A stretch of 64,000 nt of DNA from Halichondria panicea (taxonomy: Eukaryota; Porifera; Demospongiae; Suberitida; Halichondriidae): assembly GCF_963675165.1 (NCBI RefSeq), contig NC_087377.1:14690198-14754197 (forward strand). Direction: 5' to 3'. Shown here in pieces: positions 19,519 to 53,974 of the stretch (positions are counted from its first letter, which is position 1; each line of letters opens with the position of its first letter). Below the pieces are notes generated by a model that saw only the letters and a list, made by a program, of their open reading frames with translations, searched no databases and was not told the DNA's origin. The position numbers and the translations under genes were made by a program.

Positions 19519-21929
19519 TTAGTGTTTGATTTCTCCATAAGCCTGGTTCGACTGCATCTCAATGTTTCGCTTTACCGTCTAGAGTAGGATAATCATTACA
19601 CAAATATAATAATTATTTCCTCACTTGTCCATAAGCTTCATTAAACTCCACTTGAATGTCTTGTGTTCCTGGTGTCACTGCTAGACCAACTTCCTCGTAT
19701 ACTGGACCAGCTGGGATTTTTGGAGCTTCATTGCCTGACAGTTGGCTATCTATTTAGACAAACCACATAATTATAAACAGTGTATCGCAATTAAAAACTT
19801 CCGTTTACTTTTTTGTTTCTTAATGATAATCACTAAGAGAGCTATCACTACCAGGACAAGCAGTAATACCACTAACAGAACGCCAGTAACACCTCCAGCT
19901 ACAGAAGCAACGTTCCCACCAGTTACTGACACACCTATATATAAATATATAATTATAGGCCATTATGCAGCATAATATACATGCATGCAGGCAGACTCTG
20001 AACTCACACTCCAACGGAGTCAGGTCAGGTTCCCAGAGACCAGAGTTGTTACAAGTGGCAGTCACTGCACCCACCAGTGAGAACCCTGGATCACATTGGA
20101 AGGTAATGATTGAGCTCTCGGTTGGGTTGGTGTTCTGAGAGTTGGTGTTGAGTAATGCTCCATTGAGTGGAGGGGCAGGCAGGACACACGAAACTGCATG
20201 CATGCATGCATGTGTATACAAGTGTATGATTCAAGTGAACGCAAAACATAATGCTTTATTTTATTTGAAGTTAAAGCTGAAAGAGATGGAGAGATGAAAT
20301 TTGAATGTAATTATGCTTTCACTGCTATACATTTTACCTGATAACTAACTAATTGTCCCGGATAAAACATTTTACGAATGTTTTCTTTCTCACCATTAGG
20401 AAATCACTCACAAGATTCATTTCTACAGACGATCTCCCCTGGTTTATTGTTCCACTTTCCTGTAGCTAGACAGGTGGTAGTCATTATCCCCTCAGGGAAA
20501 AGTTCATCGTCACACTGGAAGGTCACTTGAGTACCGGGAATAGCTGGTACTAAATGACTGCTGATTGTGCCATTCTGTGGTGGGGATAGTGGAGCTGTGC
20601 AGTTCATTGGAGCTGTGAGGTGAAAAAATAAGTTTTTGTACAATCAAGAACTCAACTCACGAGTTGTGGGAGGGAGTGTGGGTAGTGATGTACACTCAAT
20701 AGCCTCAGGGTCTGGACTCCACATCAGTGTATCTTCACATGTCACCATTGTAACAACAGACACATGCCCAGCATCACACTGGATGGTTACTGTGGATCCT
20801 GGCAATCTGGTGGAGACTAGTCCAAATGCTCCATTCATGGGGTTGGTTAAAACAGAACAGCCACCTGCATGAGAGCTAGGGAACTATCCACAAAAATTGC
20901 TATGATGCTGTCAAACCACGTACCAATTCTGAAGTTGTACTCAACGGTTATACTGTTCCCAGCACAGTTGGTAGCCACAACACTGACAGTGTAGTTCACA
21001 TTGTATTGATCAGTCACAGTGACAGAGGTGGATGTGAGGACAGTAGCAGAGAGCTGGGCCGGAGGTGAGATGGTCACTGTATAGGTGAGGTTATCTCTAC
21101 CACCAGACTCAGTAGGAGAGTCCCAACCAATAGTCACATTAACTCCATCGACTGAGCTGCTTGAAATTGAGTTACTCAAACCAGTCAATGGTGACGGAGT
21201 AGCTACAAAGTATATGTTGTATATAAGTTGATAATTATAGAACCTCACTTGCTATCAGTATGGTGAGTTCTTCCCTCAACTCCGGCCTTCCTACAGGAAG
21301 ACAACCAATAGTGATCCCCTCCATCGCAGGGAATTTTAAACTGGAGGTGATCATTGAACTGGTGGAATTGAACACCACTGAGGTAATAGTGTACTGATCT
21401 CGTTGGTTTGGTACATCGAGTGATTGATCAATTCTGACAAGCTGTTGACCAGGGATTTCCCATTCAAAGAAAGAAGTGGACATATCAACAGGCACTGTGC
21501 AAGTGAGTGAGACCACATCTCCAACACAGGGAGTTCCAGTGTAGTCACGTGTCAAACCACCCAGCACAAACGGTATCATACCTATACATGCATGCAACCA
21601 TTAATTGTTATTATTGTGACGTTTTGTAGCCTTCACTATTGCATGGTATTAGTTATGCCCTAGCTCGTGCTTCAGTGCAATAATATGCCATGCATAAATC
21701 CCAATTAAGTGCCCATGTTGTAACTATAAAACTGATGCACCTATTTTGAGAGAAATACCAAATTTACCTAAACGTCATGCAGTAACATGCATACAGACCT
21801 ATTTATAATCAGACTATAGAGTTTAATGTCTATAGTGTAACTTACTAGCCAATACACTTTTCATATGACAGTCCTACAGTTTCTATACTCACCAACCATT
21901 AGAATCCAAACTGTCTCTGTGTCTGTCAT
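19519..21929 (-). CDS. Receptor gene B: Ig - FN3 - three CCP - TM - tyrosine tail
   Basis: Nine exons, all joining in frame (1551 nt, 516 aa): 21893-21929 (signal start MTDTETVWILMVG), 21249-21581 (Ig-like), 20924-21202 (FN3, with CAGNS near its end), 20661-20864 (CCP1), 20412-20612 (CCP2), 20008-20193 (CCP3), 19809-19934 (TM: GGVTGVLLVVLLLVLVVIAL then KKQK), 19625-19749 and 19519-19578 (tail). Junctions are phase 1 except the last, phase 0. CCPs show the usual four Cys and the late Trp. The tail carries VYEEV, FNEAYGQ and SNQAYGEIKH at the stop. YEEV resembles the Src-family SH2 ligand YEEI; that link is inference. It is probably a plasma-membrane recognition receptor; the ligand is unknown. 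It and gene D are the complete, undamaged copies in the window. Confidence 0.82.
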
Positions 21930-22433
21930 GATGAGAAGTATATCTAAACTCCAGAAGTGAGATGGCTGATCATGTGATCTATAGCCAATAACATCCATCA
22001 AACATCCAGTCATGTGACTGTACTTTAATTGATACCCTGAGATCATTGTAACGGATCCCAGTAAATTGACACTCATTAAACAGCACAATACATGCATGTA
22101 CCCCACTGTTGACGATTAATTTTGAGGTCGATATGTTAATTGTACTGCAATGGCTTAAACTGAGAAATATTGCGGGAAATTTGTAGGCTGTTATTTCAAG
22201 AATAAAAGAATGGAATATATAATAGGCAATTTCTCAGGCTCGATCCTGATCTACCAACTAAGGCCTATATAGACATCAGTCAGGAGGTCCATAGCATTGC
22301 AGGAATAATTATAGCATGCTGCATGCTTGTTTAGCCACACAATCTAGATTAATGGTTTAGCCAGCTGCTGTGATCATCAACAGTGAAAGTAAACTACAAT
22401 CGTACTATTATTGAAATAAACAAACAGTTCAGT
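21930..22433. other. Spacer between receptors B and C (promoter of B, 3' flank of C)
   Basis: No exon. The block 22020-22430 (TTTAATTGATACCCTGAGAT, AAACAGCACAATACATGCAT, CTCAGGCTCGATCCTGATCT) is matched by 47255-47640 downstream of receptor E, so this interval was part of a larger duplication. Confidence 0.6.
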
Positions 22434-24429
22434 TCAGTGCTTGATTTCTCCATAAGCCTGGTTCGACTGCATCTCAATGTTTTGCTTTATCGTCTAGAGT
22501 ATATAATAGGATAATCATTACATAAATCTATAATATAACCTCACTTGTCCATAAGCTTCATTAGACTCCACTTGAATGTCTTGTGTTTTTAGTGTCATTG
22601 CTAGACCAACTTCCTCGTATACCGGACCAGCTGGGACTTTTGGAGTTTCATTGCCTGACTGTTGGCTATCTATTGAGACAAATCACATAATTAATACGGT
22701 GTATCGCAAACAATTTTCATTTCCCTTTACTTTTTCTTTTCTTGACAATAATCATTAAGAGAGCTATCATTGCTAGAAAAAGCAGTAATAACAGACCGCC
22801 AATAACACCTCCAGCTACAGAAGCAATATTCCCACCAGTTGGAGCTGCCGCACCTATATAATTATATAGATGCGGCAGCATATACATATAGGCCATATGC
22901 AGTATAATATTATGTAAGTTCATTTATGCCTGTATACAGGCATAAATGAACTTACACTCCAATAGAGATTGATCAGGATCCCAGAGACCAAAGTTGTTAC
23001 AAGTGGCAGTCACTGCACCCACCAGTGAGAACCCAGGATCACATTGGAAGGTAATGACTGAGCCCTCAGTTGGGTTGGTGTTCTGAGAGTTAATGTTGAG
23101 TAATGCTCCATTGAGTGGAGGGGCAGGCAGGACACACGAAACTGAGCACACAGAATACAATTGTAACGTTACGCTATTCGAACTTTGAGCTCAAAGTAAA
23201 AAGGTTAATTGACACCATTAAACCATAAACCAGGTAACTTACTAGACTCATTTCTGCAGACGATCTCCCCTGGGATCTTGTCCCACTCTCCTGTAGCTAG
23301 ACAGGTGGCAGTCATTATCCCCTCAGGGAACAGTCCATTGTCACACTGGAAAGTCACATGAGTACCAGGAATAGCTGGTACTGAATGATCACTGATGGTG
23401 CCATTCTGTGGTGAGGATAGTGGAGCCTTGCAGTTCATTGGAGCTGTGAGGAGAAAAAATAATATTTATACAATCAAGAACTCAACTCACAACTTGTAGG
23501 AGGGAGTGTGGGTAGTGATGTACACTCAATAGCCTCAGGGTCTGGACTCCACATTAGTGTATCATCACATATCACCATTGTAACAGCAGACACATACCCA
23601 GCATCACACTGGATGGTTACTGTTGATCCTGGTAATCTGCTGGAGACTGGTTCAAACGCTCCATTCATAGGGTTAGTCAACACAGGACAGCCGCCTGCAT
23701 GAGAGGGGTCAGTGTAGTGTGCTGTTTAAAAACGATGTCAACTCACTAATCCTAAAGTTGTATTCAGCTGTTGTACTATTCCCAGCACAGTTGGTAGCCA
23801 CAACACTGACAGTGTAGTCCACATTGTATTGAGCAGTCACAGTGACAGAGGTGGATGTGAGAACAGTTGCAGAGAGCTGGGCCGGAGGTGAGATGGTCAC
23901 TGTGTAGGTGAGGTCATCTCTACCACCAGTCTCAGTAGGAGGGTTCCACTGTACAGACACACTAGCTTCATTGGCAGAGCTGCTCAGAGTGGAGTGTCTG
24001 ATGGTGAAAGGTGGTCCTGGTGGATCTAATTATGAATAATAGATAAACTTAATATAAACTGCTATTCAGTATCAGCAGAATGTAACTGTGTACAATGTAA
24101 CTTAACTGTACGTACCTCAACCAGCAACTCACCAACCAAACGAATCGTTGAAGATCCTATAGTGCTTACAGGCATAAACCCCAAACAGGACACAGTGATC
24201 CCATTCTCTGCTGTTCTTGACAGAGTAGATGTTAGTGTACTGTCATTGAATGCAAGCAGTGTCACAGTGTAACCTGAATGCATTAGTGGTGCATTGAGAC
24301 CAGAGGTGGAAAGGATAGTGATGGGAGTAACATCTGATGGCTCCCATCTCAAGAAAGTTCCAGCGCCAGTGCAGGTGAAAGTAACTGTTTCCATTGGACA
24401 TAGTCTCTCCACACTCACTGAATATTGTG
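22434..24429 (-). CDS. Receptor gene C: Ig - FN3 - three CCP - TM - tyrosine tail (first exon not found)
   Basis: Exons 24133-24429 (Ig, begins AQYSVSVERLCPMETVTFTC), 23747-24025 (FN3), 23491-23694 (CCP1), 23243-23443 (CCP2), 22956-23141 (CCP3), 22731-22853 (TM, GGVIGGLLLLLFLAMIAL), 22545-22669 and 22434-22493 (tail). All are open and their lengths keep frame. The tail keeps VYEEV, NEAYGQ and SNQAYGEIKH. The FN3 and CCP exons are very close to gene B, while the Ig exon groups with E and the fragment at 28975. No signal exon with a matching phase-1 donor was found between 24430 and 25300, so the gene either uses an unrecognised first exon or has lost it. Function as for B. Confidence 0.75.
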
Positions 24430-25338
24430 CTGCAAAGGAATTAATAAAGTAAAGAAAGGCACAAAAAGTTGTGTTGGCTCTTCTAGATCTATCACTTGAA
24501 ATACTGAAAGGTGCCTATTAATATTAAATCTACAAGTTTTACCACTGATGGCACTCCGAGAAGATAAACAGAATATGATAGCAAGATCTATGTAGAACTT
24601 GAGAGACAGTGGATTAGAGCCTATTCCACTCGAACTCCTGATCCCCAGTCGACTAGTCATGCTCCTGATTCCTATACTTCTTTTGTAGTGGCTCACGTAC
24701 GTACGTAATGTAACGTAATGTAACGTACACAGCAAAAACTGCTAACAAATACGGGAATTACGGGATGATCATTGAATGTCACACACACGGTACAGGTCAC
24801 AGACTTTCACGGGGGAGTAGTTTAACGGGAACCGTTGCCGTGGGGGAGGGGCTGGACGGGCAAACGTATGAAGACCGTGCAGTCTGGCCACATTAGCTGA
24901 CAGACAATAAAGAGACACCGTATATCTATAGAGTTTTGCTACTATATAATTATGTGCCCACTTCACCAATGGCTACTAATAAAAAAAACAGGGTGTACAT
25001 CTAGTTGATCAAGACGAGAGTGGATTAGAGCCACAACCAATGGCAAAGAGGACCAGATCTAGAGCTAGTGTCCTGTGTCCTCACTTGCGATCAGCACATA
25101 TCCAAATCTAGTTATTACAGTATTCAGATACAGACCTGAGTGACCCCATGACTTACCTGGATAGCTATATTCAACTGGAGTTGTACTGTCGACTCGTTAT
25201 AATAATAATAAACTTGCACTGTTTTATATTATTCTTACTGATAGGAGGAGGAGGAGGAGGAGCTCGTAATTGCGCATGCGTAGTATGAAACCCACATTTT
25301 AAGCGGGATGATTGGAGAAGCTGAGGACTTGGATTTTA
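24430..25338. other. Upstream region of receptor C
   Basis: No exon recognised with confidence. A possible donor (CAG|GTAAGT, minus strand) lies near 25152 but has no clear coding sequence before it. Small ACGTAACGTAATG-type repeats occur at 24700-24726 and a GGA repeat at 25246-25262. Confidence 0.35.
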
Positions 25339-26416: not shown

Positions 26417-26484
26417 TAGGATTTTAAGAGCCTTTACGTTGACGTTGAGCATGAGAGAGCCGGTGTCATAAAATTTTAGGCCCC

Positions 26485-26562
26485 CCATGAGATTGGGCCC
26501 CCCCCGGCCTAGAATTTTAACATTTTAGGCCCCCTCTTAAAATTTTAGGCCCCCCCATTAAC
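26485..26562. repeat. Low-complexity GGCCCCCC/AAAATTTTA repeat
   Basis: Imperfect repetition of the phrase AAAATTTTAGGCCCCC, with C runs of up to eight, lies between the TIR element and the TRAF-like gene. No coding potential. Confidence 0.75.
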
Positions 26563-27360: not shown

Positions 27361-28620
27361 CTATCTACATTCATGTTTTGTTATGCAAATTTTAGCATAT
27401 AAATCATCTTCAACTGGACAAAATAGTGTCAAAATTGGTTTTTCATTTTGTCCTGGTTCAAAATATGTCAGATCGACATCGGTGCAATAATTGCAGAGCG
27501 GTATAGCAAAACTGTCTTTGTTGAGAGCTTGTCCTGAGTAGTATCGATTTGATAATGTCTTGTACGTGATAGTCATAATGTTGGGTATTGGCCAGGGAAG
27601 GAATTTATCGTTATTGCTCCGTTCAAGCACAAGTTCCACACTGAATTTTACTTGACCACGCCTCATATACATCTTGTATCCAGGATGTATGCGGAATGAT
27701 GGAGTGCGAATCGAGCCATTTTCTTTGGTAAAGTGAAGTGTGGCGTCTTTATTCGGAAGCAGCATAGTTGTCAGGATCGTTTGAATACAATCCAGTCTTC
27801 TTGTTGTGAGGATTGAACCTTGTTGGCTTCTGCTCTTGTCTTGATAGCTCAGCTCTTTCGAAACAGCCAAAAGAACAGTGTCAAATTTTTGCTGAAGCTC
27901 TTCATGCTCGGATTTTAGCTTTTGGTAGTTTGTAGCACTAGTTTTCATTGAAAGCTTTAAGTGATCTTGAAGGCTTGAAACTTCATGCAAATTCATCTCT
28001 TGGCGTGTCAGAGACAAGTTGCATCCAACTTCAATAAAAGGGCACTGTACTATCTCAAGCTTGCACTTCTGTCGGTGGCTTTGAACGTTTTTTCGCTTTA
28101 TATTGAAGGCTCCGCATTTATTGGGACAATGGATACTAACGTCAGGACAAACCTTAGTATGAACGCCTACTATTTCGTGATACTCTCCCTCGGTTTGGCA
28201 TAAATCACAAGCTATAATTCGATTTTCGCACTCCTCTTCCAAGTGTTGCTCCAGATCTTTCCGCTTAAATTGCTCCCTGCATTTATTGCTACAATCCACA
28301 ATTCCGTACGGACATTCACTCAAATGCTTATTAAACTTGCTATAAGTCGTAACTACTTCACACTCTTGGTTACCACAATTCATCTCAAGTTCGTTGATCT
28401 CTCTCTTCATTGGTTTGGACTCGATAAATTTGAAGTTTTTTTTCCGGCAATGAGGGCAAGTCTTGTTTGATTTGAGCCATTTGTTCAGGCAATCGTTGCA
28501 GAAATGTCCTCCACAGCACTCCGTTAGAAGAGGGTTGTTTAGAAGACTAGCACAGATAACACACTTGTACTTTGCAAGCAATTCTTTCAAAAACAATTGT
28601 TCAAGGATTGGAGTAGCCAT
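27361..28620 (-). CDS. Intronless RING / TRAF-type zinc finger / MATH-like protein (TRAF-like, 419 aa)
   Basis: Start chosen at MATPILEQ (28620); an in-frame ATG at 28725 would add 35 low-complexity residues. Residues 20-58 form a C3HC4 RING (C20, C23, C36, H39, C41, C44, C55, C58). Residues about 77-210 hold TRAF-type zinc-finger repeats (HLSECPYGIVDCSNKC, HLEEECENRIIACDLC and similar). A coiled-coil stretch follows (LKSEHEELQQKFDTVLLAVS). The C-terminal ~140 residues look like a divergent MATH/TRAF-C sandwich (FRIHPGYKMYMRRG, FLPWPIPNIMTITY). Proteins of this plan are cytoplasmic adaptors and E3 ligases acting below cell-surface receptors. It is one uninterrupted exon in an intron-rich region, and it lies inside the receptor cluster. 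A signalling link to the neighbours is inference. Confidence 0.85.
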   Translation of the reverse strand: MATPILEQLFLKELLAKYKCVICASLLNNPLLTECCGGHFCNDCLNKWLKSNKTCPHCRKKNFKFIESKPMKREINELEMNCGNQECEVVTTYSKFNKHLSECPYGIVDCSNKCREQFKRKDLEQHLEEECENRIIACDLCQTEGEYHEIVGVHTKVCPDVSIHCPNKCGAFNIKRKNVQSHRQKCKLEIVQCPFIEVGCNLSLTRQEMNLHEVSSLQDHLKLSMKTSATNYQKLKSEHEELQQKFDTVLLAVSKELSYQDKSRSQQGSILTTRRLDCIQTILTTMLLPNKDATLHFTKENGSIRTPSFRIHPGYKMYMRRGQVKFSVELVLERSNNDKFLPWPIPNIMTITYKTLSNRYYSGQALNKDSFAIPLCNYCTDVDLTYFEPGQNEKPILTLFCPVEDDLYAKICITKHECR

Positions 28621-28737
28621 CACTTGGTCTTGCGTTTGTGTGGTGATAATGTTTGTGCACTGCATGCATGTGTGCTTGTGTGCATGTTGTTTTGTTTTTA
28701 TACCCTCTGCGCATGCATGCTGCATGTACAGTCTCCC

Positions 28738-28890
28738 AGAAAAGGAGGATTCATGGAAATTGGATTCATTGTCTATAGGTTCTCAGAAAATGAGGGTTCA
28801 TTGTCTGTGGTTTTTAGGAAATTGGATTCATTGTCTGTGGTTTTTAGGAAATTGGATTCATTGTCTATAGTACTCAGAATATGAGGATTC
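28738..28890. repeat. Tandem ~34-bp minisatellite upstream of the TRAF-like gene
   Basis: Repeats of GGATTCATTGTCTGTGG followed by TTTTTAGGAAATT or CTCAGAAAATGAG alternate about five times. Two adjacent copies (about 28796-28829 and 28830-28863) are essentially identical. It is about 120 bp upstream of the chosen start codon and could affect the promoter, though nothing shows this. Confidence 0.8.
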
Positions 28891-28974
28891 ATGGAAATTA
28901 CTGATTTCCATGCACCCCGCCACATGCATGTGAATCTCTTTATAATATATATAGCCTTATCAAGAATTAATAGT

Positions 28975-30134: not shown

Positions 30135-32222
30135 TCAACTCATGTATCCAATTTCTCCATAAGCCTGATTCAACTGCAGCTCAATGTTTTGCTTGGCCGA
30201 CTGGAGTAGGATAATCATTATTTGCAAATCAAATAATCTCTAATCTCTCACTTGTCCATAAGCTTTATTAGACTCCACTTGAATGTTTTGTGTTCTTGGT
30301 GCCATTGCTAGATCAACTTCCTCGTATACCGGACCAGCTGAGGCTTTTGGAACTTCAACAGACATTTGGCTATCTGTTGAGCCTAATCAAAAAATTAATA
30401 TACGAAATTATTATAGATTGAATAGGATTTCTGTACGATTGCAAACAATGTTCTCACTTTCTCTTTTCTTTGTGATAATGAATAAGAGAACTATGAGCAC
30501 CAGAACAATCAGTACCACCACAAACAAACCGCCAACAACACCTCCAGCTACAGCAGCAATACTCGCACCAGTTACTGGCACACCTATAATAGGCCATTTT
30601 ATACACATGTCTTTGATATGTAAATGAAATATACTCACGTTTAATTGCAAGTACACACATGATGGTGTCAGGCTCTGTGCTCCACACTCCAGCATTAGTG
30701 CAAGTGATGATGATGGGTCCAGTCAGTGAGAGTCCATTGTCACATTGGTAAGTCAGCACTGTTCCCTCCAACACTGTCTCATTCAACCTATGATAGTCCA
30801 CTATAGTACCATTGGATGGCTCAACAGGAACAGTGCAGTTGACTGTGTATACAACAGTAAAATAAGTGACAGCACTACCTGGAAAAATCCTGCACTACAG
30901 TACTGCGATCAATCTCACTATGAAACTCACCGATTGTTGGACACACAAAATTCTCAGGGTTAGGATTCCATCGTCCATCACTGCCACAGATAGAGGTTCT
31001 TATCTGATCACTCCCAGAACAAGTGAAGGTCAGTGTGGAGTCCACAGTAGGTACACTGGGTGTCTGGACATTGACCACTCCAATAGCAGTAGAGAGGGAG
31101 GAAGGACAAGAAACTGCATGGATTGAGAATAGAGGTAAGTTAAACAAAACTCTACAAATTAAGTGACACATTAATGCTTGCTGACCTGTGGACAGTGTAG
31201 TAAACAACATTGAGGCATTGCTCATTCCAGCACAGTTGACAGCTCTGATAGACACATTGTAGGGAGTGTTGTAGGAGATGGTTATCTGTGCTGAGGTAGT
31301 CTCCACGGTGACTGGTGATCCGGAGAGAGGTGTTAGGGAAATGGTGAGAATATACATGACAGACACACCACCAGTGAAGGAGGGAGGGTCCCAATTCAAA
31401 GTGATAATGGAAAACCTGACTAGGTTTTGTTGAGAAGTCACTATCAGAGCAGATGGAGAAGATGGAGGCTCTGTTTGAGATGCAATAACACTATTAGATC
31501 TACACAACAGCATTTACTATTTTTTTGTCATTCACCGGCTACATTGATTGTGAGTGACTCAGTTATATCCCCCAAACAGCTCACAACACTGCCGTTTAGC
31601 CTAGACACTTCAGTGATGGTTGTGAGGGTAGAGGTAAGAGTACCATTACTGGTGGCAGCCACAGCAGCTTGAAACATGAATCCTTCAACTCCAGCAGGTG
31701 GTATACTACCAGTTGAAGAAGTTATAACCTGTGTTACCGACACAAGATAGTCAGGTGTAGGGTCAACTCTCCACAAAAGTGAAGTTCTACCAACAGAGCA
31801 GGTGAAGACAACAGGGTCATTTGGGCATGCCACACCATCACCACTGCTGGATGTCAACTGGTTGGCTGTGAACAAAGTGTACATGCATGTATGTACTATA
31901 GCTTACGGATAAACCTATCAATGCATGTATAAAGGAATAGAACAACATCAATATAAGCCAGATCTATAGATTTTAGCTATAGCGTGTACATAATCTATTG
32001 TGGACTCTTTAATTATTATATGGACTGCATGTGAAGATATACTCAGCAATGATTACCTTTTATATGTATATAATTATAGCTTACACCAGGAGCTTACACA
32101 CTGTCACAAATAATAGATAGTAGACATTCTAACTTACTAGAGACTGTAGAAATGAAGTGACTGTGACTGACAATGAAATAGATACATTGAAAACAAAGCA
32201 GTTTACACTCAGAGATATCCAT
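30135..32222 (-). CDS. Receptor gene D: Ig - FN3 - two CCP - TM - tyrosine tail
   Basis: Eight exons in frame (1410 nt, 469 aa): 32138-32222 (signal, MDISECKLLCFQCIYFIVSH), 31536-31865 (Ig, CPNDPVVFTC and GSVVSC), 31186-31470 (FN3), 30931-31113 (CCP, VSCPSSLSTA to ENFVC), 30639-30842 (CCP, VNCTVPVEPSNGTI to DTIMC), 30458-30583 (TM, GGVVGGLFVVVLIVLVLIVL), 30252-30382 and 30135-30200 (tail). All junctions are phase 1 except the last, phase 0. It lacks one of the three CCPs of B and C. The ectodomain is well diverged from B and C, but the tail keeps VYEEV, NKAYGQ and LNQAYGEI and ends GYMS, a variant terminus. It is intact, so it is likely functional with a different ligand. Confidence 0.82.
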
Positions 32223-36189: not shown

Positions 36190-36240
<51 letters not shown>

Positions 36241-39200
36241 ACAAACACACTACCGTATACCTTGCTTGTGCATGCGCACCGAGGCATAATTATATATATA
36301 GTTATCACTCATGCATGCATACATAAATGGATGAACCCTCCAGCTGCAGAGGGATATAAGTAATTCACGCATTTGTTAGAGAGAGGTTGTTTTCTTTATT
36401 GTGCTCAAGGGCTGACAGTGCATGCATGGGCAAGAAAGGACAAGCTTAGCTATAGTTAGCCTCGTTCCAACCGAGTTGTCTCTAAAATAACGCTAGATCG
36501 CCAACTTCAATCGTTTTATTTCGGCCTGGGAACAAGGCTATAAGCTGCAGTATGACATGTGTAGTATATTGTTTAGCCAAGCATGCAGTGAAAGTGCATG
36601 GTTGCTTATGCATATACTATAATTATGCATTCACGGTACATAATTATATAGTATATGCAATCAATCGTGCAATAGAAAAAAGTATTTACCCCATCCAATA
36701 ATAAAGAATATCCACCATTTCTTGGATATTTGGTTGAAGACAAGCACCAACATCAGATAGAGCATGATTCCCTCACACAGCATCCAAAAGAACACAGTAG
36801 TGAACAGGTAGTGAAGGAGAGCAGCCACAAACACACACGCTCCCTGCAAGTGATGGAGAATTGTAAAGGATCAATACAGTATAGACTCTCGCTAATCTGG
36901 CTCTCTGAATTATGGTCAGCTCGATAATAATTATACCAGCCGTTTTCGTTATAGGCATGGATTGCTATAATTATAGCTAGATCAATACTGCACAAACTCA
37001 CCCTGAAATGCGGCCACCTCGCTATTCCATATATATACTAGTCAGTTCTAACATGCTCCAAGCCAGATTCTTTAATGGGATACACATAATATATATTATG
37101 TAATACGAATATAATTATGAGAGCAAAAGGCCAAGTCATGGATCCTACTGTATACAGTAAAAGTTTGGAACAACAGTGAACAATCTAATTTGTGAATGAG
37201 CCAAATAAGCAGAAAAAATTGACACTTTGCTATCTGTATAACTTTTACAATCATGCAGGCAAGGATGGTGATATCATAAAAGTATACTGAAATAGGTATC
37301 TGCGATCTTATTTTTGAGATGCCATAAGCACTCACAAAGCGCAAATGGAGTATAATAGTATTATGATATATATAAGGCTTGCTCATATATGCATGAATTT
37401 CGGCATGCACGTTGTCCGTTAAAGTTTTAAGGTAAAGTGTACCAGCTATACAATACTGCTTATAGATACACGACTCAAGTTATACACCTCACCTTGTTGG
37501 CCACAGCAGTCTCTACTCCTGACAGGAACACCACGTAACCAAGCAGCAAAGAAATAGACAGGTTGAGATGGATAAAGCTATGAACCTTGGTCAGTAGCTC
37601 TTTTCTAAGTATCAACAGCATAATAATTAAGGTTTTATGTAGGCAAAGCTTCAATAATTACCTCAATGTCAAGAAATAGAGGATAGACAAAAAAAGAAAG
37701 AAGATGGAGATGGAACAACCAACATAAGTCACCACCGACAGAGCAAACCTGATCTCTGGAGTTGTGTCCTACAAAGATCAAACATAATTATGAACTGATC
37801 TAAAGTATTCGCTGCATGAGGCTCACATTCAGTGCTCCAGTGACATCCATTAGAACAGAAAATGCTGTGAAATGACTGCTCTCACAGACAATATTATACA
37901 CTCTCATTTGCTCGTCTTCACCCACACTGACTGTAATCACACCTTCCGTGGACCACGTGCTGTTGGCCGCATCACTGACAAAATAAATCTTTGACAACAA
38001 TAAACATTAGGAGGACATGCAGCTCACCTAGAAACACTCCAAAATACACATCTTGCATTTTCAGCAACTTCATCTTCAGAGAACTGCACAGTGACACACA
38101 TGCAAGCATGAATTAGTGTTGCTTGTAAGTCCAACTACCTTTTGGGTGGTGAATCTGAAGGTTGCCTGTGCCTGAGAGTTAGTTAACTTTACATTGGAGA
38201 AGACTTGACTAGAAATAACCTGTGACACTGGTCTGGTCGTGTTCCTGCATATATAAACACAATGAGACAGAATAGAACATGATTTAGTATAGTACATTTC
38301 AAAGTTGGTTTTTGGAAGAAAATTCTCCAAGTTGGAAAATAGAATGTTGACTGCTGTAACATTCCCATCTGAAAATTGAGACAGACACGGATAAATTGGT
38401 TACCACCATAGTTTATGAAATACTTAGAGCGCCTCTCTCCATAAGATGAGCAGCTGGTATCACAGTTTGGGCTGAGCCTGTTTCTTCACTGACTTCGATA
38501 ACTTCAGGAAAGATAATGTCATCCAAACTAGTGGTGTCAACTTCAATTGCAGCTAGTACTGGACGGTAAATGCAAATATACTAGCTTCAAATCAAGCTAT
38601 TTAGCAATGATTATAAATGCATGCATGGTGGAAGTACCCGTACCGATGTTCTGTCTCACAAGTGTGATCTCTGTCACGTTTCCTGTATCCACAGCTTTAC
38701 TCCTTAGTGCCAATGACACATACTGACCATATAACTCTGCACTCAACAGCAATTGCTGACTCTCAGCAGCAGAATCCTGAAGTAATATTTGCATGATTGT
38801 CAGTTAAGTACTGTATATTTGTATACCTCTTGTAATCTTTCCCATCCTTCTGTATTCCTCTCATCCAGAACATTGTTGAGAACGTTCATAACTTCCTGCA
38901 AGACACTAATAAAAGGGATGTTTTACTTAACTTATAGTCTTACTTCACTAAAATTGAGAGAAGACATGGGGCTAGCAGTCTCAACGTTTTGAACGAGGTA
39001 ATTCACACTTGACTTGACGATCGTATTAGTAATGCTGAGGCCTTGAGGGAATATGGTGGAGTCTCCAGTTGCATTTACACTAGTAGCCTCCGCAAGAGAA
39101 ACAAGAAGGTCATCAACTTCACTCTGAGATGCATTTCTAGAAAATAGTTCATTTGCCTGAATGGAGAATAAATCGTTATGAAACGACGATATCAAGGGCT

Positions 39201-42200
39201 TATATAGGGCATGCATGCAACTCAGGCTATTCTCAGACTCAGCAAACTTCATAATTATACTGTTACTCATTCCGCTGGGCGGAATGCTTGCCACTATACT
39301 GGACTCTATTTATATAGTACATCCTGTCTCTGAAATGAAGTTGGATGATTACATAGTTTCTCTTTAAGCCTTTGACGATATACACGTGCAACATTATTCA
39401 GTATATATACGTATGACAGACAGTGCATGTATTTGTGTAAATTAATACATGCAGTAACTGCAAAAGCCTCACCCTGTCAAGAAGTGAGATGAATACTTCC
39501 CTTAGGCTAGTGCATTTATCAATATTCACTGCTTCCCACACACCACTCAGTGTACAGAAACGATTTGCAGTACCTATTAATACATGCACATCAACACACA
39601 GTCACATGGAATGATAAAATGATACCTAAAGTTTTTCCATTTTCATTTTGTGGGCATTGCTGGGAATAGGAAAAGCCAGCCACAGTGGCAGGGAAGACAA
39701 GCCCCCATACAGAATCACGTTCAGCTTCACACTGAACCACGACTATAGATAAAAACCATAATTATAATCAAATTGTGTTTTCTATTCAGTTGCTACGACC
39801 ATGAACGAGGCAGAGTCCAAACAGCACATGCAAGTGTTTATGCATTCGCTTTGGTTGGACTCCACCCAACTAAATGAGTATGAGGATGCAATATCAAAGT
39901 TCGGCAGCCTCGCAGACCCGAACTGTATAGTCTGAACACATCAATTTCAGCCAGGAGGTATATAATTATAGCCTCGAATCTGGGCCGATCAAAATACCGA
40001 ATTTTGTCAGATGTCAATAATCGTCAGCTAAAACGAACAAAATGAGATTGATTCTAACTCCAATAGGTGGCTATGGGACTACTAACCAGTGAACATTTGT
40101 GGGTCAAATCGCTTCCAGTCGGAGCTGTGATCACTAGAAAAAACTGTCCAATCGTTCGATTTTCGGCGGGATGGGGCGTCTTACTATGCATAGTATTGCG
40201 GATTCACTATCATCTATACCACATTTCCTTGTTTGTATAATGAAGTGCTTTGTATGTGTGGCTGATACTGTTTGATCTGAATATCATTCAGTACAATGAA
40301 TAATGTCAGCAGCACTTAGCGGTTTGACATAATTATTATATGGCATGATTTGTACATACATACATATAGCTAGACGATACTGAATCATAAGACGCTCCAC
40401 ATCCACTCGTGTGCTCTTGCACTGACACATAGCACAGTATAGTGTTGAGCAGACTGAGAATATTCTCTTCTCGTGTAGTTGTGGAATATACAGCCTTGGA
40501 AAACATTGTAGCATTAATTGCCGTTTTCATTGAGCACATTCACTCTAATGCTTGCAAAAAGGGGGGGGGGAGGGTGACATTATCAGTAACTTTTACTGTT
40601 AAAAAAATGAGTTGTTTCAAAGTCTAGCTATGATAATAATGTGAGGGAGGTTGTTAGGATGATCAGCGGCAATCAATAATTGTCCAATAAAAGCGGATTA
40701 AGATATCAGCATGTTGAGGGAAATCCAAAAAAAGTGAATCATCACTTCAACCACGAGAGGATCTTTGCACTACTCTACTGCCATTACTCGCAGGAATACA
40801 GTACTTTTACACACATGCATGAACGTGTACATGAATGATATTCTAGTGATCTTCTATTTAAATAGTATTTAAATGCTCAACTTACTATTACAGACGACTT
40901 CACCAGTTCTAGACAATGAAGCCACAAATCCATTCAAGCAGCTACAGTTGAACTGTCCCATGTTATTCAAACAAATAGAATTTTGACCACAGTTGCATTG
41001 TATGGGAGATAATCTCATGCCTCCAGGGTAACCATACGAATTGAATGCATTGAATCCATACACTGAGACACCTAGAACGGCTGAGCTGTTTTGATGGCGG
41101 ATAGAATGAGCTCCAGTAGACACATTTGTTCTACTTATATGGCCACAAATATCTCCACTTGAACAGACAACATTCCTCCAGCCAGTAACAATGGAATTGT
41201 CTAGTAATATTTGTGCAGTTTGAAAGAACTCAGAAGGAACATACACCGTGACATAGTTGGATACGAAAAGAAGAAACGCTTTGACCAAATAATTATTTGT
41301 ATACTGCTCAATTGGAGGGATCATCATCATGAATGGGTCTCCCATGCCATCACTATCCCTACCATACGCATACTGTGTGACCAGTACTGGTGAAGTGGAT
41401 TCAATGCTACAGAAACTGTTAATAGGGATTTCAAATTCTCTGAAACTCCCTCCACTCTGTAACTGGAATTGACTGACTGATACAACAGTGTTACAGTTCA
41501 CAACTACATTTGCTGCTCGGGCACTAAGAACACGAATACGTTCACCAGAAGATCTACCCTCGAGAGATGCCACGAGGAATTTTGAGCCCCATGTCACAGT
41601 CGGAGGCACTTGTTCAACCACGTGGTCACAACCACCTATACCTGGAGGAACTAAAATACAATCAGATCCACTAAACACAGACAAAGGTTTGGAGCTAGTT
41701 ATTCTTGTTCCCGTGAGATCATTATCGCTTTCAATCTGATATGTTTCCATACTATTGAGTGTTATTGTCGAGGAAATGAATTTGACAACAGTTTCATTTT
41801 CACAAGCCACCAGCAAAATCGCACTAGGATAGACACTACTAATGGTGTCATAGGAGATTCCATAATATTCATATTCATCAACTGCCATTATAGAACATGG
41901 TAACGCTAAATAAGCATCTGCACTACCTGAATGAAAAGACAGCCCATACACACTGATGTTTCCATCAGCTTCAACAAAGATTCCCTTGTTCCTTTCATCA
42001 ACAGATAATACCTCAAAACTGGATGGAACGTTTACCCTAGTTGAAGAGTTAGAAATGTTCCCACTGATATTAATTGGAGTGACTGTGAAATTAACACTTG
42101 ACTTTGGGTTTGTGATAAATAAGAACAACTCGTCTGCGCCTTGACCAAAACTTGTTGGGAAACCGACCGCAAATTTTTTTCCAGCACTTGATGAGGTCTC

Positions 42201-42352
42201 ATCTAGGATTAATGGACAGTTCAAGGCTTAATACATGTTAATAGAGACTACAAGAATTCAGTCCTACCTGTAATTTGGGCATCACAAGATGGAGCAAATG
42301 TGATTATGATTATTGTCAATGCCAAAGTAGATCTAGCAATTCTGTAGCTCAT
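34389..42352 (-). CDS. Adhesion GPCR with IgGFc-binding-like and EGF ectodomain
   Basis: Twenty-one exons: 42268-42352, 40886-42226, 39626-39743, 39473-39573, 38944-39156, 38827-38895, 38644-38776, 38424-38558, 38296-38368, 38139-38244, 38028-38083, 37827-37974, 37662-37768, 37493-37604, 36690-36843, 35594-35660, 35353-35428, 35111-35211, 34861-35029, 34728-34805, 34389-34556. Order: signal ([12 protein letters not shown]); IgGFc-binding-like domain ([34 protein letters not shown]); EGF ([18 protein letters not shown]); hormone-receptor-motif-like stalk ([17 protein letters not shown]); GAIN; GPS (RCVFW, then [12 protein letters not shown]); seven TM (TM3 [20 protein letters not shown]2 YCW, TM6 [16 protein letters not shown]7 [16 protein letters not shown]); tail ending LLENDN. 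Splice phases agree throughout, but exon 3 has one extra base near 39718-39722 that breaks frame (3610 nt in total). About 1202 aa if that base is an error. The joint between exons 2 and 3 (1.1-kb intron) is the weakest link. Confidence 0.78.
36191..36237. repeat. (CA)n microsatellite in a GPCR intron
   Basis: An uninterrupted run of about 22 CA units is followed by CAGACACACAAACACAC. It is in the intron between the TM4 and ECL2 exons. Confidence 0.95.
36473..36541. mobile_element. Small GCCTCGTT-type inverted-repeat element in a GPCR intron
   Basis: It starts TAGCCTCGTTCCAACCGAG and ends TTTCGGCCTGGGAACAAGGCTA; the ends are imperfect reverse complements. About 69 bp. The ends match the elements at 3828, 25341 and 57102. 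Confidence 0.6.
39969..40069 (+). repeat. Dispersed repeat, copy 2 (partner at 3124-3238)
   Basis: Same blocks in the same order as 3124-3238 (AGCCTCGAATCTGGGCCGAT, TTTTGTCAGATGTCAATA, GAGATTGATTCTAACT, CCAATAGG) with a few indels. It lies in the large GPCR intron between the EGF and stalk exons. Confidence 0.7.
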
Positions 42353-42359
42353 TATTTTT

Positions 42360-45093: not shown

Positions 45094-45174
45094 TAGTAGC
45101 TTCATAAATTATTATGTAGCTTTAATTGACCACCTATATGACCACCGAGGCATCAGGACCCGTGGTATATATAT

Positions 45175-47672: not shown

Positions 47673-49869
47673 TTAGTGCTTGATTTCTCCATAAGCCTGG
47701 TTCGACTGCATCTCAATGTTTCGCTTTACCGTCTATAGAGTAGGATAATCCGCATTACATAAATCTATAGCTTTATGATCCTCACTTGTCCATAAGCTTC
47801 ATTAAACTCCACTTGAATGTCTTGTGTTCCTTGTGTCACTACTAGACCAACTTCCTTGTATACCGGACCAGCTGAGGCTTTTGGAGCTTCATTGCCTGGC
47901 AGTTGGCTATCTATTTAGACAAATCACATAGTTAATATTGTATTCGCAAACAATTGTCACCTTTACTTTTTCTTTTCTTGGCTAAGAGAGCTATCATTAC
48001 CAGGACAAGCAGTAATAACACTAACAGGCCGCCAGTAACACCTCCAGCTACAGAAGCAACGTTCCCACCAGTGGGAGCTGCCACACCTATATAGGCCATT
48101 ATGCAGCATACATGCATGCATGCTGGCAGACACAAATCAATGAACTCACACTCCAATAAAGTCCGGTCAGGATACCAGAGACCAGAGTTGTTACAAGTGG
48201 CAGTCGCTGCACCCACCAGTGAGAACTCAGGATCACATTGGAAGGTAATGACTGAGCCCTCGGTTTGGTTAGTGTTCTGATTGTTTGTGTTGAGTAACAC
48301 TCCATTGAGAGGAGGGGCAGGCAGGACACAGGAAACTGCATGGGTACAAGAATATGTTTTGTAGCTGAAAGAGATGAAGAAGATATATGTACTTAGAAAA
48401 TTCTATGCGATGAATTGTGTTCACTGCTGCTAAATGTTTGCATTTTACCTGGATATAATAAAACTCAAGATAAACTATTTTTATGAATGGTTCCCTTTTT
48501 ATCATAAAGAAGTCACTCACTAGATTCATTTCTGCAGACGATCTCCTCTGGATTCTTGTCCCACTCTCCTGTAGCTAAACATGTGGCACTCATTATGCCC
48601 TCAGGGAATAGTCGATCGTCACACTGGAAGGTAACTCGTGTACCAGGTATAGCTGGTACTGAATGACTGCTGATAGTACCGTTCTGTGGTGAAGGTAGTC
48701 GAACTGTGCAGTTCATTGGAGGAGCTGGAGTGATGAAGAATTAATGTGAAATGTCCATACTATCAAGAACTGAACTCACGAGTTATACGAAGAGGCTGGG
48801 TTAATGGTGTACACTTAATAGTCTCAGGACTCCACATCAGTGTTCCCTCACAAGTCACCATTGTAATAGCAGACACATACCCAGCATCACACTGGATGAT
48901 AACTGTAGATCCTGGCAATCTGCTGGAGACTGGTCCGAATGCTCCATTTATGGGGTTGGTCAACACAGGACAGCCACCTGCATGAGAGGGATTGAACTAT
49001 TAATATTATAAAAAATGTACGATGCTGTCAAATCACGTATAATTATACCAATTCTGAAGTTGTACTCAGCTGTCGTACTGTTCCCAGCACAGTTGGTAGC
49101 CACAACACTGACATTGTAGTCCACATTGTATTGAGCAGTCACAGTGACAGAGGTGGATGTGAGGACAGTAGCAGAGAGCTGGGCCAGAGGTGAGATGGTC
49201 ACAGTATAGGTGATGTCACCAGTCTCAGAAGGTGGGTTCCAACCAACAGTCACACTAACTCCATTATTTTGCTGAGCTGCTCGAAGTAGAGTGTCTTATG
49301 GTGGAAGGTGGTCCTGGTGAATCTAATTGAACACCTTTTTAGACACAACCAAGCTTGCTAACACAGTCTCCTAATCTATACTACTACATGCACTTGAGGT
49401 CAAATCATGCAACGTGAAAACGGTTGCATGTATATACACAGAAAGCAATTTACTTACCAACCAAACGAATTATTGAAGATCCTATGGTTGTTAAAACAGG
49501 CAGTGGATACTCACACGACACAGTGAGACCATTCTCAGCTGTTCTTGACAGAGTAGATGTTAATATAGTGTCATTGAATGCAATCAGTGTTACAGTGTAA
49601 CCTGATACAACATTGGCTACATTGAGACCAGAGGTGGAACGAACAGTGATACGAGCTGCATCTGATGGTTCCCATCTCAAGGTATTTCCAGGAACAGTGC
49701 AAGTGAAAGTGACTGTTTCCATTGGACATGGTCTCTCAATACTTACTGAATATTCGGCTTTACAAACGCATGAATGTAAGGAGACATAATTATAATCGAA
49801 TATTCTTTCTTACCAGTGCTGAAGCCAGCCAGAGAGCAAGTCAGGAGAACTCTATATAACAAGCAACAT
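47673..49869 (-). pseudogene. Receptor gene E: complete exon set but broken
   Basis: Exons: 49814-49869 (signal), 49458-49757 (Ig), 49049-49322 (FN3), 48780-48977 (CCP1), 48521-48724 (CCP2), 48150-48335 (CCP3), 47967-48086 (TM), 47786-47910 and 47673-47732 (tail). Two lesions are visible. The FN3 exon is 274 bases where B, C and D have 279, 279 and 285, because of an insertion of about 4 bases after SSSA (AGCAAAATAATGG), which shifts frame and meets a stop. In the signal exon the only ATG (49867-49869) runs into TAG after five codons, although the sequence after it still encodes VLLTCSLAGFST in another frame. The tail has VYKEV in place of VYEEV. The TM lacks the usual residues after ALLAKKRK. 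All splice sites are intact, so inactivation is recent, or these are assembly errors. Confidence 0.78.
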
Positions 49870-50665: not shown

Positions 50666-50855
50666 AGAAGCTGATTAGGTAAAGAGTGTTAACTAGAGTA
50701 AGCATCTTTCTTTGATGTTATTTCGGAAATCATTCCGTACAATCTGGACAAGGGTGACCAAGAAGCTGATTAGGTAAAGAGTGTTAACTAGAGTAAGCAT
50801 CTTTCTTTGATGTTATTTCGGAATCATTCTGTACAATCTGGACAAGGGTGACCAC
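50666..50855. repeat. Tandem duplication, two ~95-bp units
   Basis: The unit begins AGAAGCTGATTAGGTAAAGA and ends GACAAGGGTGACCA. The two copies differ by one deleted A (GGAAATCATT vs GGAATCATT) and one C/T change, so duplication was recent. Confidence 0.92.
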
Positions 50856-52814: not shown

Positions 52815-53974
52815 TATATGCATGATTTCTCCATAAGCCTGGTTTGACTGCAATTCAACTTTTCACTGTCATGTTTTTTTTGTTTTGCTGTTCTTGTAAC
52901 TTTTTCATACAATGTTCAATACAGTTCATATTTCACACAAATGTCACAAATGATATGGGCAACAGAAATTGCTGCCTGGGGTAAGATAATCAGATGACTC
53001 AAATCTCTATCAGGTTCATTTTCTCACTTGTTCATAAGCTTCATTAAACTCCACTTGAATGTCTTGTGATCTTGGTGTCATTGCTAGACCAACTTCCTCG
53101 TATACGGGACCAACTGGAGATTTTGTAACTTCACTTCCTGAAAGTTAGTAATGTGCTGAGCCAAATGTGAGATAGATCTAGTGATTTTGTACAATTGCAA
53201 ATACTTTTTGCTCCGAGGACGAAGGTGAAGCCCCGAGACCAAGGATGGTTTGCATTGCCATAAATTTATATAGATGTATAGTGGATAATAGTTTATGGTA
53301 ATCAAACCACCCCAGTTGCTATGATACAGACCCCAAGTGAGATATATTTCGGACTTGCTCTTACTTTTTCTTTTTTTGATGATAATGACTCTGAGCACCA
53401 CGAAACTCAGCACCACTACAAGCAGACCACCAATAACACCTCCAGTTACAGCAGCAATGTTCCCACTTGTTAAATGACAAGCGACACCTGTATCGACACA
53501 AATGAACTTACACTCCAATAGAGATGGATCAGGATCCCAGAGACCAGAGTTATTACAAGTGGCAGTCACTGCACCCACCAGTGAGAACCCAGGATCACAT
53601 TGGAAGGTAATGACTAAGTCCTCAGTTAGGTTGGTGCTCTGAAAGTTGGTGTTGAGTATAACACTCCATTGAGTAGAGGGGCAGGCAGGACACAGGAAAC
53701 TGCATTAGTATATAATTATAATTATATGCACTGGAAGATGGTGATGCACACAGATAAAGAAGTCACTCACTAGATTCTTTTCTGCAGACGATCTCCCCCG
53801 GGTTGCTCTCCCATTCTCCTGTAGCTAGACAGGTGACAGTCATTTTTCCCTCAGGGAACAGTCCATTATCACACTGGAAGGTCACTTGTGTACCGGGAAT
53901 AGCTGGTACTGAAGGATCACTGACGGTACCATTCTGTGGTGAGGGTAGTGGAGCTGTGCAGTTTATTGGAGGAG
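52815..53974 (-). pseudogene. Receptor gene F: truncated copy (CCP2, CCP3, TM, tail)
   Basis: Exons: 53771-53974 (CCP2), 53512-53699 (CCP3), 53365-53487 (TM, GGVIGGLLVVVLSFVVLRV), 53028-53137 (tail with VYEEV and NEAYEQ) and a degraded last exon near 52815-52870 (SNQAYGEI readable, acceptor lost). Signal, Ig, FN3 and CCP1 exons are absent: the YWTD gene begins 43 bases beyond CCP2. CCP3 is 188 bases against 186 in B, C and E because of a 2-base insertion (TATAACAC vs TAATGC), which shifts frame. Confidence 0.78.

What the first reader, a model, noticed from the sequence alone, without database searches (positions are those of the whole stretch)
19519..53137. Receptor family with a conserved tyrosine tail under variable ectodomains
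Genes B, C, D, E and F share the same last two coding exons. The tail reads GPVYEEVGLA..., then (F/S)N(E/K)AYGQ, then NQAYGEI near the stop. YEEV (YKEV in E) resembles the Src-family SH2 ligand YEEI, and the NxAYG phrase occurs twice in each tail, 21 and 15 residues apart. Receptor D has diverged strongly outside but keeps the tail. Ectodomains vary in sequence and CCP number. That pattern suggests selection on a signalling module shared by a receptor cluster. The sequence facts are direct; the SH2 role is inference.
Basis: partly seen in the sequence, partly recalled or inferred. Interest (0 to 1): 0.75.

Follow-up and report, generated by a model that had tools for sequence, protein, structure and literature searches.

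The report
Giant receptor array, shared tyrosine tail
The five window genes belong to an array of about two hundred or more receptor gene copies, mostly on one chromosome, whose outer parts vary while a short inner tail with fixed tyrosines is kept, a layout like that of immune and self-recognition receptors in other animals.

Summary
The tails are real, with one correction: gene F reads NEAYEQ, so NxAYG occurs twice in four of five tails. The five genes are a corner of a larger family: 211 distinct tail places, 208 on one contig, 188 within 3.75 Mb, a lower bound. Two main tail types with dissimilar membrane spans keep one grammar: PAGPVYEEV, a linker, then I-x-V/L-x-x-N-E/Q-A-Y-G. Protein-level selection is clear in family 2 (NQAYGP: 49 synonymous to 3 amino-acid changes) and between families (core pN 0.02, pS 1.07). 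In the window's own family the tail exon is also low at silent sites, so exchange or homogenisation contributes. Ectodomains and tails assort independently: gene C's Ig is about 80% identical to family-2 genes, 32% to neighbour B. The Ig frame is conserved, with variable patches near CDR positions; positive selection is not shown. ITAM and hemITAM were not found; ITIM in 1 of 77 family-2 tails. Best reading: recognition receptors with an SH2-type YEEV site and NxxY, PTB-type sites. Binding, expression, ligand and species are untested.

The parts
19519..19578 (-). gene B last coding exon, TVKRNIEMQSNQAYGEIKH*
   Evidence: sequence read
19625..19749 (-). gene B tail exon 1, ...PAGPVYEEVGLAVTPGTQDIQVEFNEAYGQ
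19809..19934 (-). gene B transmembrane exon
   Evidence: splice signals read by eye
20008..20193 (-). gene B CCP3 exon
   Evidence: Pfam Sushi E 2.2e-7
20425..20613 (-). gene B CCP2 (approximate domain span)
   Evidence: Pfam Sushi 3.5e-7
20689..20865 (-). gene B CCP1 (approximate domain span)
   Evidence: Pfam Sushi 3.5e-5
20925..21197 (-). gene B FN3-like domain
   Evidence: Pfam fn3 E 1.9e-4, 22 bits, below the 25-bit cut-off
21247..21558 (-). gene B Ig-like domain, diverged from gene C's
   Evidence: Pfam Ig_3 only E 0.2; aligned with gene C Ig
22434..22493 (-). gene C last coding exon, TIKQNIEMQSNQAYGEIKH*
22545..22669 (-). gene C tail exon 1
22731..22839 (-). gene C transmembrane segment (approximate)
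22954..23142 (-). gene C CCP3 (approximate)
23256..23444 (-). gene C CCP2 (approximate)
23519..23695 (-). gene C CCP1 (approximate)
23748..24029 (-). gene C FN3-like domain (approximate)
24125..24430 (-). gene C Ig domain, up to 82% identical to Ig exons in the 11.5-13.9 Mb array
   Evidence: AlphaFold2 mean pLDDT 86.7, nine strands
30135..30200 (-). gene D last coding exon
30252..30373 (-). gene D tail exon 1 (NKAYGQ)
30655..30843 (-). gene D membrane-proximal CCP (approximate)
   Evidence: Pfam Sushi 9.6e-8
31211..31471 (-). gene D FN3-like domain (approximate)
   Evidence: Pfam fn3 0.0016, below cut-off
31531..31866 (-). gene D Ig-like domain
   Evidence: 38% to gene C Ig in alignment; no Pfam match
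47673..47732 (-). gene E last coding exon
47786..47910 (-). gene E tail exon 1 (YKEV variant)
48148..49758 (-). gene E ectodomain exons: CCP3, CCP2, CCP1, FN3, Ig (with introns)
52815..52874 (-). gene F last coding exon (approximate)
53028..53150 (-). gene F tail exon 1 (approximate start); first repeat reads NEAYEQ, not NEAYGQ
53516..53969 (-). gene F CCP3 and CCP2; nothing resembling gene C's Ig or FN3 found up to 58000
   Evidence: Pfam Sushi 1.8e-6 for the CCP3 part

Best explanation
The window holds five genes of a very large clustered family of single-pass receptors (Ig-like, FN3-like, 1-3 CCP, transmembrane, short tail). The outer Ig domain differs between germline copies mainly in CDR-like patches, which suggests recognition of variable ligands (non-self, symbiont or self). 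Ectodomain exons and membrane-tail cassettes are exchanged between genes. The tail is a signalling adaptor: a ligand-engaged receptor would be phosphorylated at YEEV by Src-type kinases, recruiting SH2 proteins, and at N-x-A-Y-G, recruiting IRS/FRS2/Dok-type PTB adaptors; motif copy number would set valency. Shown: number and clustering of tails, modularity, selection on motif codons in family 2 and between families, predicted Ig fold, patchy Ig diversity, SH2 and PTB matches in the genome. Inferred: membrane topology in vivo, phosphorylation, partners, and the immune or self-recognition role.
For: (211 tail places, 208 on C1). (motif patterns far above reversed controls). (76 family-2 tails: omega-like 0.017 for NQAYGP, 0.128 for GPVYEEV, 0.25 linker, 0.67 TM, 0.81 juxtamembrane). 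(27 by 76 tails between families: core pN 0.021, pS 1.07). (ectodomain and tail similarity decoupled). Searches (YEEV unit in 1-3 copies; NQAYG unit doubled in L059). (Ig frame conserved, BC, CC', FG regions variable). (Ig fold prediction; weak best PDB profile hits are nearly all antibody chains and CD4). (14 IRS-PTB and 71 SH2 matches, exon by exon; one open frame with three tandem IRS-PTB domains, the third like FRS2/FRS3 and keeping LRRYG...GRRC). (passages): CD200R, a vertebrate immune receptor, recruits Dok2 through an NPxY/NxxY tyrosine whose proline is not conserved outside mammals.
Against: No phosphorylation, binding, expression or polymorphism data. Family-1 tail exon 1 has low synonymous divergence and dN/dS near 1 as a whole; motif against linker N:S there is p 0.59. 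In family 2 GPVYEEV against linker is p 0.07. Third tyrosine lost (NQAHGEI) in 3 of 20 family-1 last exons, and YEEV's tyrosine is H in 1 of 27 (L036). Proline of NPxY absent in 27 of 27 and 77 of 77. Ig patches have omega-like mostly 0.5-0.9 with one ten-codon window at 1.5, and one of 102 sites reaches uncorrected p 0.004, so relaxed constraint is not excluded; variability is not confined to loops. Some members look broken: a stop in the aligned last exon of L031, a stop before the second motif in L112.
Confidence: 0.6

Rival explanations
1. The tail looks conserved mainly because the genes duplicated recently and gene conversion or unequal crossing-over homogenised the 3' exons; there is no special selection on the tyrosine motifs.
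For: Family-1 tail exon 1 has pS 0.12 against 0.45 in CCP3, with dN/dS near 1 over the exon; motif against linker N:S p 0.59; near-identical tails and evenly spaced repeats of tail groups recur in the array.
Against: Amino-acid differences within that exon avoid the motifs (pN 0.03-0.04 against 0.18-0.22 in N-terminal part and linker). In family 2, NQAYGP has 49 synonymous and 3 amino-acid changes. Between families silent sites are saturated and the core protein is nearly unchanged. Flanking non-coding sequence differs more (0.28-0.51 per site against 0.12, sets include a few exon bases).
Confidence: 0.15
2. The tyrosines are trafficking signals (Yxx-phi for AP-2, or NxxY for clathrin adaptors of the Dab/ARH type) that set surface level and uptake, not phosphotyrosine docking sites.
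For: Yxx[LIVMF] is present in 26 of 27 family-1 tail exons and 77 of 77 family-2 tails. Some PTB domains bind unphosphorylated tyrosines (passages). The CD200R paper says NPxY motifs mostly mediate trafficking (abstract and passages).
Against: At the first family-1 NxAYG the +3 residue is T or S in the 9 rows whose aligned exon start could be read so (8 T, 1 S; 5 unknown and 12 cut short or F's partial row), not hydrophobic, while N-3 and A-1 are kept. Both E residues of YEEV are kept, which AP-2 does not need (recalled).
Confidence: 0.2
3. The tail is an ordinary ITAM/ITIM-type immunoreceptor tail.
For: YEEV with YGEI or YGPV are paired Yxx-hydrophobic units; Botryllus FcoR tails can carry a Yxx[ILV] core motif (passages).
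Against: ITIM in 0 of 27, 0 of 21 and 1 of 77 tails; ITAM and hemITAM patterns in none. Y-to-Y distance differs between families (22 against 17).
Confidence: 0.05

Closest known systems
Botryllus fester co-receptors, FcoR (PMC12065747, passages seen)
   Same: Clustered multigene family (53 loci so far); Ig plus sushi ectodomain, one membrane span, tail with tyrosine motifs including a Yxx[ILV] core motif
   Different: FcoR tails can carry ITIM and hemITAM; order V-Ig, sushi, two C2-Ig; no FN3 or NxAYG unit named in the passages; chordate
Hydractinia Alr family (41 genes, PMC11999971 passages; the original paper was not read)
   Same: Clustered IgSF genes of an invertebrate with tyrosine motifs in the tail
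   Different: Motifs reported there are ITAM/ITIM type (PMC12065747 passages); no CCP named in the passages; the family here is larger
CD200R and Dok2 (PMC8007030, passages seen)
   Same: Receptor tail signalling by an NxxY site whose proline is not conserved, with a conserved P285-Y286 pair upstream
   Different: Not a large clustered array in that paper; no YEEV unit named in the passages
IL-4 receptor I4R motif and IRS PTB (PMC5962649, passages seen)
   Same: NxxY tyrosine read with the influence of upstream residues (-9 to -7); here I/M at -8 and V/L/M at -6
   Different: NPxY there, no proline here; different receptor class
Vertebrate Ig-receptor clusters KIR, LILR, NILT, CHIR (search listing only; details recalled)
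   Same: Clustered Ig receptors with signalling tails under varied ectodomains
   Different: ITIM/ITAM signalling and no CCP (recalled)

Membership tests
Immunoglobulin superfamily (outer domain) | Ig beta-sandwich with two core Cys and a Trp | tested here: met
   Cys20, Trp29, Cys82 invariant in 10 of 10 aligned; model pLDDT 86.7, nine strands. Against: Pfam Ig score far below cut-off or no match; fold search unavailable
CCP/Sushi proteins | Pfam Sushi above cut-off | tested here: met
   Gene B CCP1-3, one CCP of D and CCP3 of F above the 20.7-bit cut-off; C and E not scanned, similar by alignment
FN3 | Pfam fn3 above cut-off | tested here: inconclusive
   Gene B 22 bits, D 19 bits, cut-off 25; L059 27.5 bits, above; L062 17.9, below
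ITIM receptors | [ILVST]xYxx[ILV] in the tail | tested here: not met
   0 of 27 family-1 exon-1, 0 of 21 joined tails, 1 of 77 family-2 tails; consensus recalled
ITAM/hemITAM receptors | Paired Yxx[LI] 6-12 apart, or [DE]GYxxL | tested here: not met
   0 in all three sets; consensus recalled
Src-class SH2 ligands | Phosphorylated YEEI/YEEV-type sequence that binds | not testable with these tools
   Sequence YEEV present; consensus recalled; binding not tested
NxxY ligands of PTB domains | N at -3 of Tyr | tested here: met
   26 of 27 family-1 exon-1, 76 of 77 family-2 tails; binding not tested
NPxY ligands of PTB domains | P at -2 of Tyr | tested here: not met
   0 of 27, 0 of 21, 0 of 77
Allorecognition receptor family | Polymorphism that goes with fusion or rejection | not testable with these tools
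   One genome only

The most novel reading that the evidence does not exclude
An early-branching animal carries a germline repertoire of some two hundred or more V-like Ig receptors, diversified in CDR-like patches and shuffled by recombination onto a few membrane-tail cassettes, all signalling through one conserved two-part docking tail (YEEV for SH2, NxAYG for IRS/FRS2-type PTB adaptors such as a triple-PTB protein). It would be the missing self/non-self receptor system of its lineage, with a tail code independent of ITAM and ITIM.
Probability: 0.33. Interest if true: 0.92.

Novelty: new variant of a known kind. Interest (0 to 1): 0.72.

Why it matters
This array gives a concrete, clustered candidate set, predicted signalling partners (SH2 proteins and a triple-PTB adaptor) and a diversity pattern, all of which grafting, sequencing and phosphopeptide experiments could test directly.

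Tried and rejected
Five-gene cluster as the whole story: rejected by genome searches. Plain purifying selection as the sole cause of tail conservation in the window: rejected, because tail exon 1 is also low in synonymous divergence. ITIM, ITAM, hemITAM membership: not met apart from 1 of 77 ITIM. RNA elements: no Rfam match at gathering score in the window. Homologues in viral or prokaryotic contigs: none confirmed for one 82-residue query (11 pattern matches, 0 confirmed; 129 and 0). A YWTD-like reading by eye of ORFs upstream of gene F: no Pfam match, left open. Region borders were drawn after seeing the counts; one search repeats the test with loops as DSSP gives them (94.5 amino-acid changes in 19 codons of the BC, CC', C'-D and FG loops against 9.5 in 15 codons of the AB, DE, EF loops; codon permutation p 0.0002; N:S Fisher p 0.038; against strands p 0.09).

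All change counts come from Fitch parsimony on FastTree trees; recombination among genes violates a single tree. Rows dropped: family 1 used 27 of 30 loci for tail exon 1, 20 for exon 2, 26 for TM, 24 for CCP3 (short, broken or unmatched rows left out). Family 2 used 76 of 80 fetched loci (L041, L042, L056, L112 left out). Ig used 28 of 150 scored matches, with 171 first-look candidates. Loci were picked from similarity-ranked hits, so diverged tails and Ig domains are under-sampled. Literature: ten searches listed no paper that I recognised as describing this tail or array; I saw listings, and passages of eight papers; the library lacks most subscription journals.
Full report
WHAT WAS CLAIMED. 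Five receptor genes in the window share two 3' exons with YEEV and two NxAYG tyrosines, under variable ectodomains. I checked this and then asked how far the pattern extends, whether it reflects selection, and what the tail may do. The window is G000:C1:14690198-14754197 of a 131 Mb genome in 39 contigs.

THE OBSERVATION. All five tails are present on the minus strand. Gene B reads SQLSGNEAPKIPAGPVYEEVGLAVTPGTQDIQVEFNEAYGQ, a short GT...AG intron, then TVKRNIEMQSNQAYGEIKH and stop. E has YKEV, D has NKAYGQ. Gene F reads NEAYEQ, so the statement that NxAYG occurs twice holds for four of five. Shuffled sequence gives 0.04 and 0.05 such matches against 5 and 10 found.

THE FAMILY IS MUCH LARGER. 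A search with gene B's tail exon gives 118 matches at E up to 10. A search with a second tail type gives 282 first-look candidates, of which 150 were scored, each below E 1e-13. Merged within 400 bp these 268 entries are 211 distinct places, 208 on contig C1, 188 of them between 11.2 and 14.95 Mb at a median spacing of 7.7 kb. Places are tail exons, some possibly in broken genes; unscored candidates make the number a lower bound. The GPVYEEV codon pattern occurs 218 times genome-wide (reversed control 0), N[EQ]AYG 381 times (control 30).

TWO MAIN TAIL TYPES, ONE GRAMMAR. Family 1 (window type) has a separate membrane exon and two tail exons. Family 2 has membrane span and tail in one open frame, ending for example GPTVPAGPVYEEVSPKEEIELNTNQAYGPVGL. 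A third type at 9.31 and 9.92 Mb reads APIYEEVGLSGNDIQLEYNDAYGK or close to it (L041, L056). Membrane spans of families 1 and 2 give no useful match, yet PAGPVYEEV and I-x-V/L-x-x-N-E/Q-A-Y-G are shared. The Y-to-Y distance is 22 residues in 24 of 26 family-1 tails and 17 in 67 of 76 family-2 tails. The YEEV unit is repeated two or three times in some family-1 genes (three, one of them YKEV, in L022). The NQAYG unit is doubled in the upstream gene of L059, and pattern positions at 11480188, 11480242 and 11480296 suggest three in a row elsewhere (sequence not read). Kept motifs with family-specific spacing and variable copy number look like separate docking sites rather than one rigid tandem motif.

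ECTODOMAIN AND TAIL ASSORT INDEPENDENTLY. Gene C's Ig, FN3 and CCP1 are 79-81%, 86-90% and 83-88% identical to those of five genes with family-2 tails (L059, L124, L125, L126, L127), while the membrane span gives no useful match and the tail aligns at about 40% through the shared motifs. A sixth, L128, has the same kind of ectodomain (Ig 79%, FN3 86%), but its tail was not in the stretch held. Gene B, next door and with an 82% identical tail exon 1, has 32% identity to C in Ig (73 residues aligned). Gene D has 29-40% in its ectodomain but 57% in TM and 69% in tail exon 1. By similarity to gene C's CCPs, one is found in L124, L126, L127, two in L059 and L125, three in B, C, E. Gene F shows CCP2 and CCP3 and nothing like gene C's Ig or FN3 up to 58000.

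SELECTION. Family 1: tail exon 1 has pN 0.118 and pS 0.120, CCP3 0.239 and 0.449, TM 0.253 and 0.296, tail exon 2 0.111 and 0.406. Sequence beside the tail exons differs by 0.28-0.51 per site against 0.12 in exon 1; the sets include a few exon bases, and the 0.51 set is inflated by rows whose upstream 80 bases are a duplicated YEEV unit. So exon 1 is conserved at silent sites too, a sign of exchange, conversion or nucleotide-level constraint. Inside it amino-acid differences avoid the motifs: GPVYEEV pN 0.040, NEAYGQ 0.033, N-terminal part 0.18, linker 0.21. By tree counts the N:S contrast is not significant (14:7 against 74.5:25.5, p 0.59).

Family 2 (76 of 80 fetched tails): NQAYGP has 49 synonymous to 3 amino-acid changes, GPVYEEV 24 to 10, linker 49 to 45, juxtamembrane 102 to 235. 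Against juxtamembrane p is 2e-19 for NQAYGP and 6e-6 for GPVYEEV; against the linker 4e-8 and 0.07. Both tail tyrosines are Y in 76 of 76; the juxtamembrane tyrosine is Y in 66, F 5, C 3, H 1, T 1, so it too is mostly kept, but less strictly (0 of 13 against 7 of 13 changes are amino-acid changes, p 0.005). Between families the ten core codons have pN 0.021 and pS 1.07, that is, silent sites saturated; over all 17 aligned codons pN is 0.11 and pS 0.71.

THE IG DOMAIN. Pfam barely sees it (gene B Ig_3 E 0.2, gene C and D none). Cys20, Trp29 and Cys82 are invariant in ten aligned sequences, and AlphaFold2 gives nine strands at mean pLDDT 86.7 and pTM 0.79. The PDB profile hits are weak (best E 0.023); of the 60 shown of 103, nearly all are antibody chains and CD4. 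In 28 Ig exons the overall omega-like ratio is 0.49. Amino-acid changes concentrate in three stretches, residues 22-27, 31-51 and 83-90, at 5.3-6.7 per codon against 0.4-1.5 in most other elements; strand G is intermediate at 3.0 (borders drawn after the fact). With loop borders from DSSP alone the contrast holds for BC, CC', C'-D and FG loops against AB, DE, EF loops (permutation p 0.0002), though strands vary too. These are roughly the places of CDR1-3 in V domains (recalled). Positive selection is not shown: ten-codon windows in the patches run from 0.5 to 1.5, and one of 102 sites reaches uncorrected p 0.004. I read this as germline diversification of a binding face; relaxed constraint is not excluded.

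MECHANISM. YEEV resembles the Src-class SH2 ligand (recalled). NxAYG is an NxxY site. At -8 stands I in 26 of 26 family-1 first sites, I or M in 20 of 20 last-exon sites and I or M in 76 of 76 family-2 sites; at -6 V or L in 26 of 26, L or M in 20 of 20 and L in at least 72 of 76. There is no proline at -2. A review states that IRS PTB domains read NPxY with influence of residues at -9 to -7 (PMC5962649, passages). CD200R recruits Dok2 through such a tyrosine, and its proline is conserved only in mammals (PMC8007030, passages). The genome has 71 SH2 and 14 IRS-type PTB matches, counted exon by exon. One locus, C11:6542400-6545200, encodes three IRS-type PTB stretches in one open frame followed by proline-rich sequence and the motifs YDTV, YANV and YANI. 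Its third PTB matches FRS2 and FRS3 (E 4e-21) and Dok1 (4e-12), and keeps LRRYG...GRRC. A multi-PTB adaptor would be a natural partner for repeated NxAYG sites; that pairing is my inference.

RIVALS. Homogenisation explains part of the family-1 pattern but not family 2 or the between-family result. Trafficking signals remain possible; the first family-1 NxAYG lacks a hydrophobic +3 in the rows where it could be read (8 T, 1 S). ITAM and hemITAM were not found, and ITIM in 1 of 77 family-2 tails.

COMPARISON. Closest in design are Botryllus fester co-receptors (V-Ig, sushi, two C2-Ig, tail with ITIM, hemITAM or a Yxx[ILV] core motif; 53 loci; PMC12065747, passages) and Hydractinia Alr (41 genes; PMC11999971, passages). 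This family works like them in layout but is not a member by any test made here, and its tail code differs. Sponge transcriptome papers report Ig, FN3 and Sushi genes among those regulated after microbial cues (PMC6208332 and PMC8242945, passages), with no mention of this tail in the passages seen. I call it a new variant of a known kind.

LIMITS. One genome, unnamed; no expression, no population data, no second species. Counts rest on similarity-ranked hits. Near-identical blocks in the array may be real segmental duplication or assembly duplication.

Noticed in passing
G000:C11:6542400-6545200 (L129:742-2799 +): One open frame with three tandem IRS-type PTB domains, a proline-rich stretch and several YxxV/I motifs: a candidate multi-PTB adaptor, third PTB close to FRS2/FRS3.
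   Followed up: partly
G000:C1 11.25-14.93 Mb (positions): Groups of tails recur with similar spacing and similar scores (e.g. 11707517/11713314, 12425084/12430835, 13694429/13700009), suggesting large block duplications or assembly duplication.
   Followed up: no
window 27361-28782 minus: ORF of 473 aa with RING, two TRAF zinc-finger stretches and a weak MATH match, between genes C and D.
   Followed up: no
window 34765-42227 minus: Exons that look like an adhesion-type GPCR: 7tm_2 match at 36661-36870 and an IgGFc-binding ORF with a weak EGF match at 40869-42227; whether they form one gene was not tested.
   Followed up: no
L060 (G000:C1:12843300-12849300), 313-489 +: An IgGFc-binding-like stretch (E 9e-13) lies a few kb upstream of a tail of the SGPVYEEVTPIQ...NEAYGPL type; whether it belongs to the same gene is unknown.
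   Followed up: no
window 53516-53701 minus and L036 (just past the window end): The start of gene F's CCP3 looks frame-altered by eye, and the next gene, L036, has VHEEV in place of VYEEV and no good last-exon match: possible decaying members.
   Followed up: partly
L059 about 3194-4000 +: A long minisatellite-like stretch (repetitive in translation) between two receptor genes.
   Followed up: no
window 59150-60554 minus: Cysteine-rich ORFs with a VWC match (E 4e-9) and repeated antistasin-like units by eye.
   Followed up: no
L022, L023, L024 (C1 about 16.52-16.54 Mb): Third tail tyrosine replaced by histidine (NQAHGEI) in three related genes that carry two or three YEEV-type units.
   Followed up: partly
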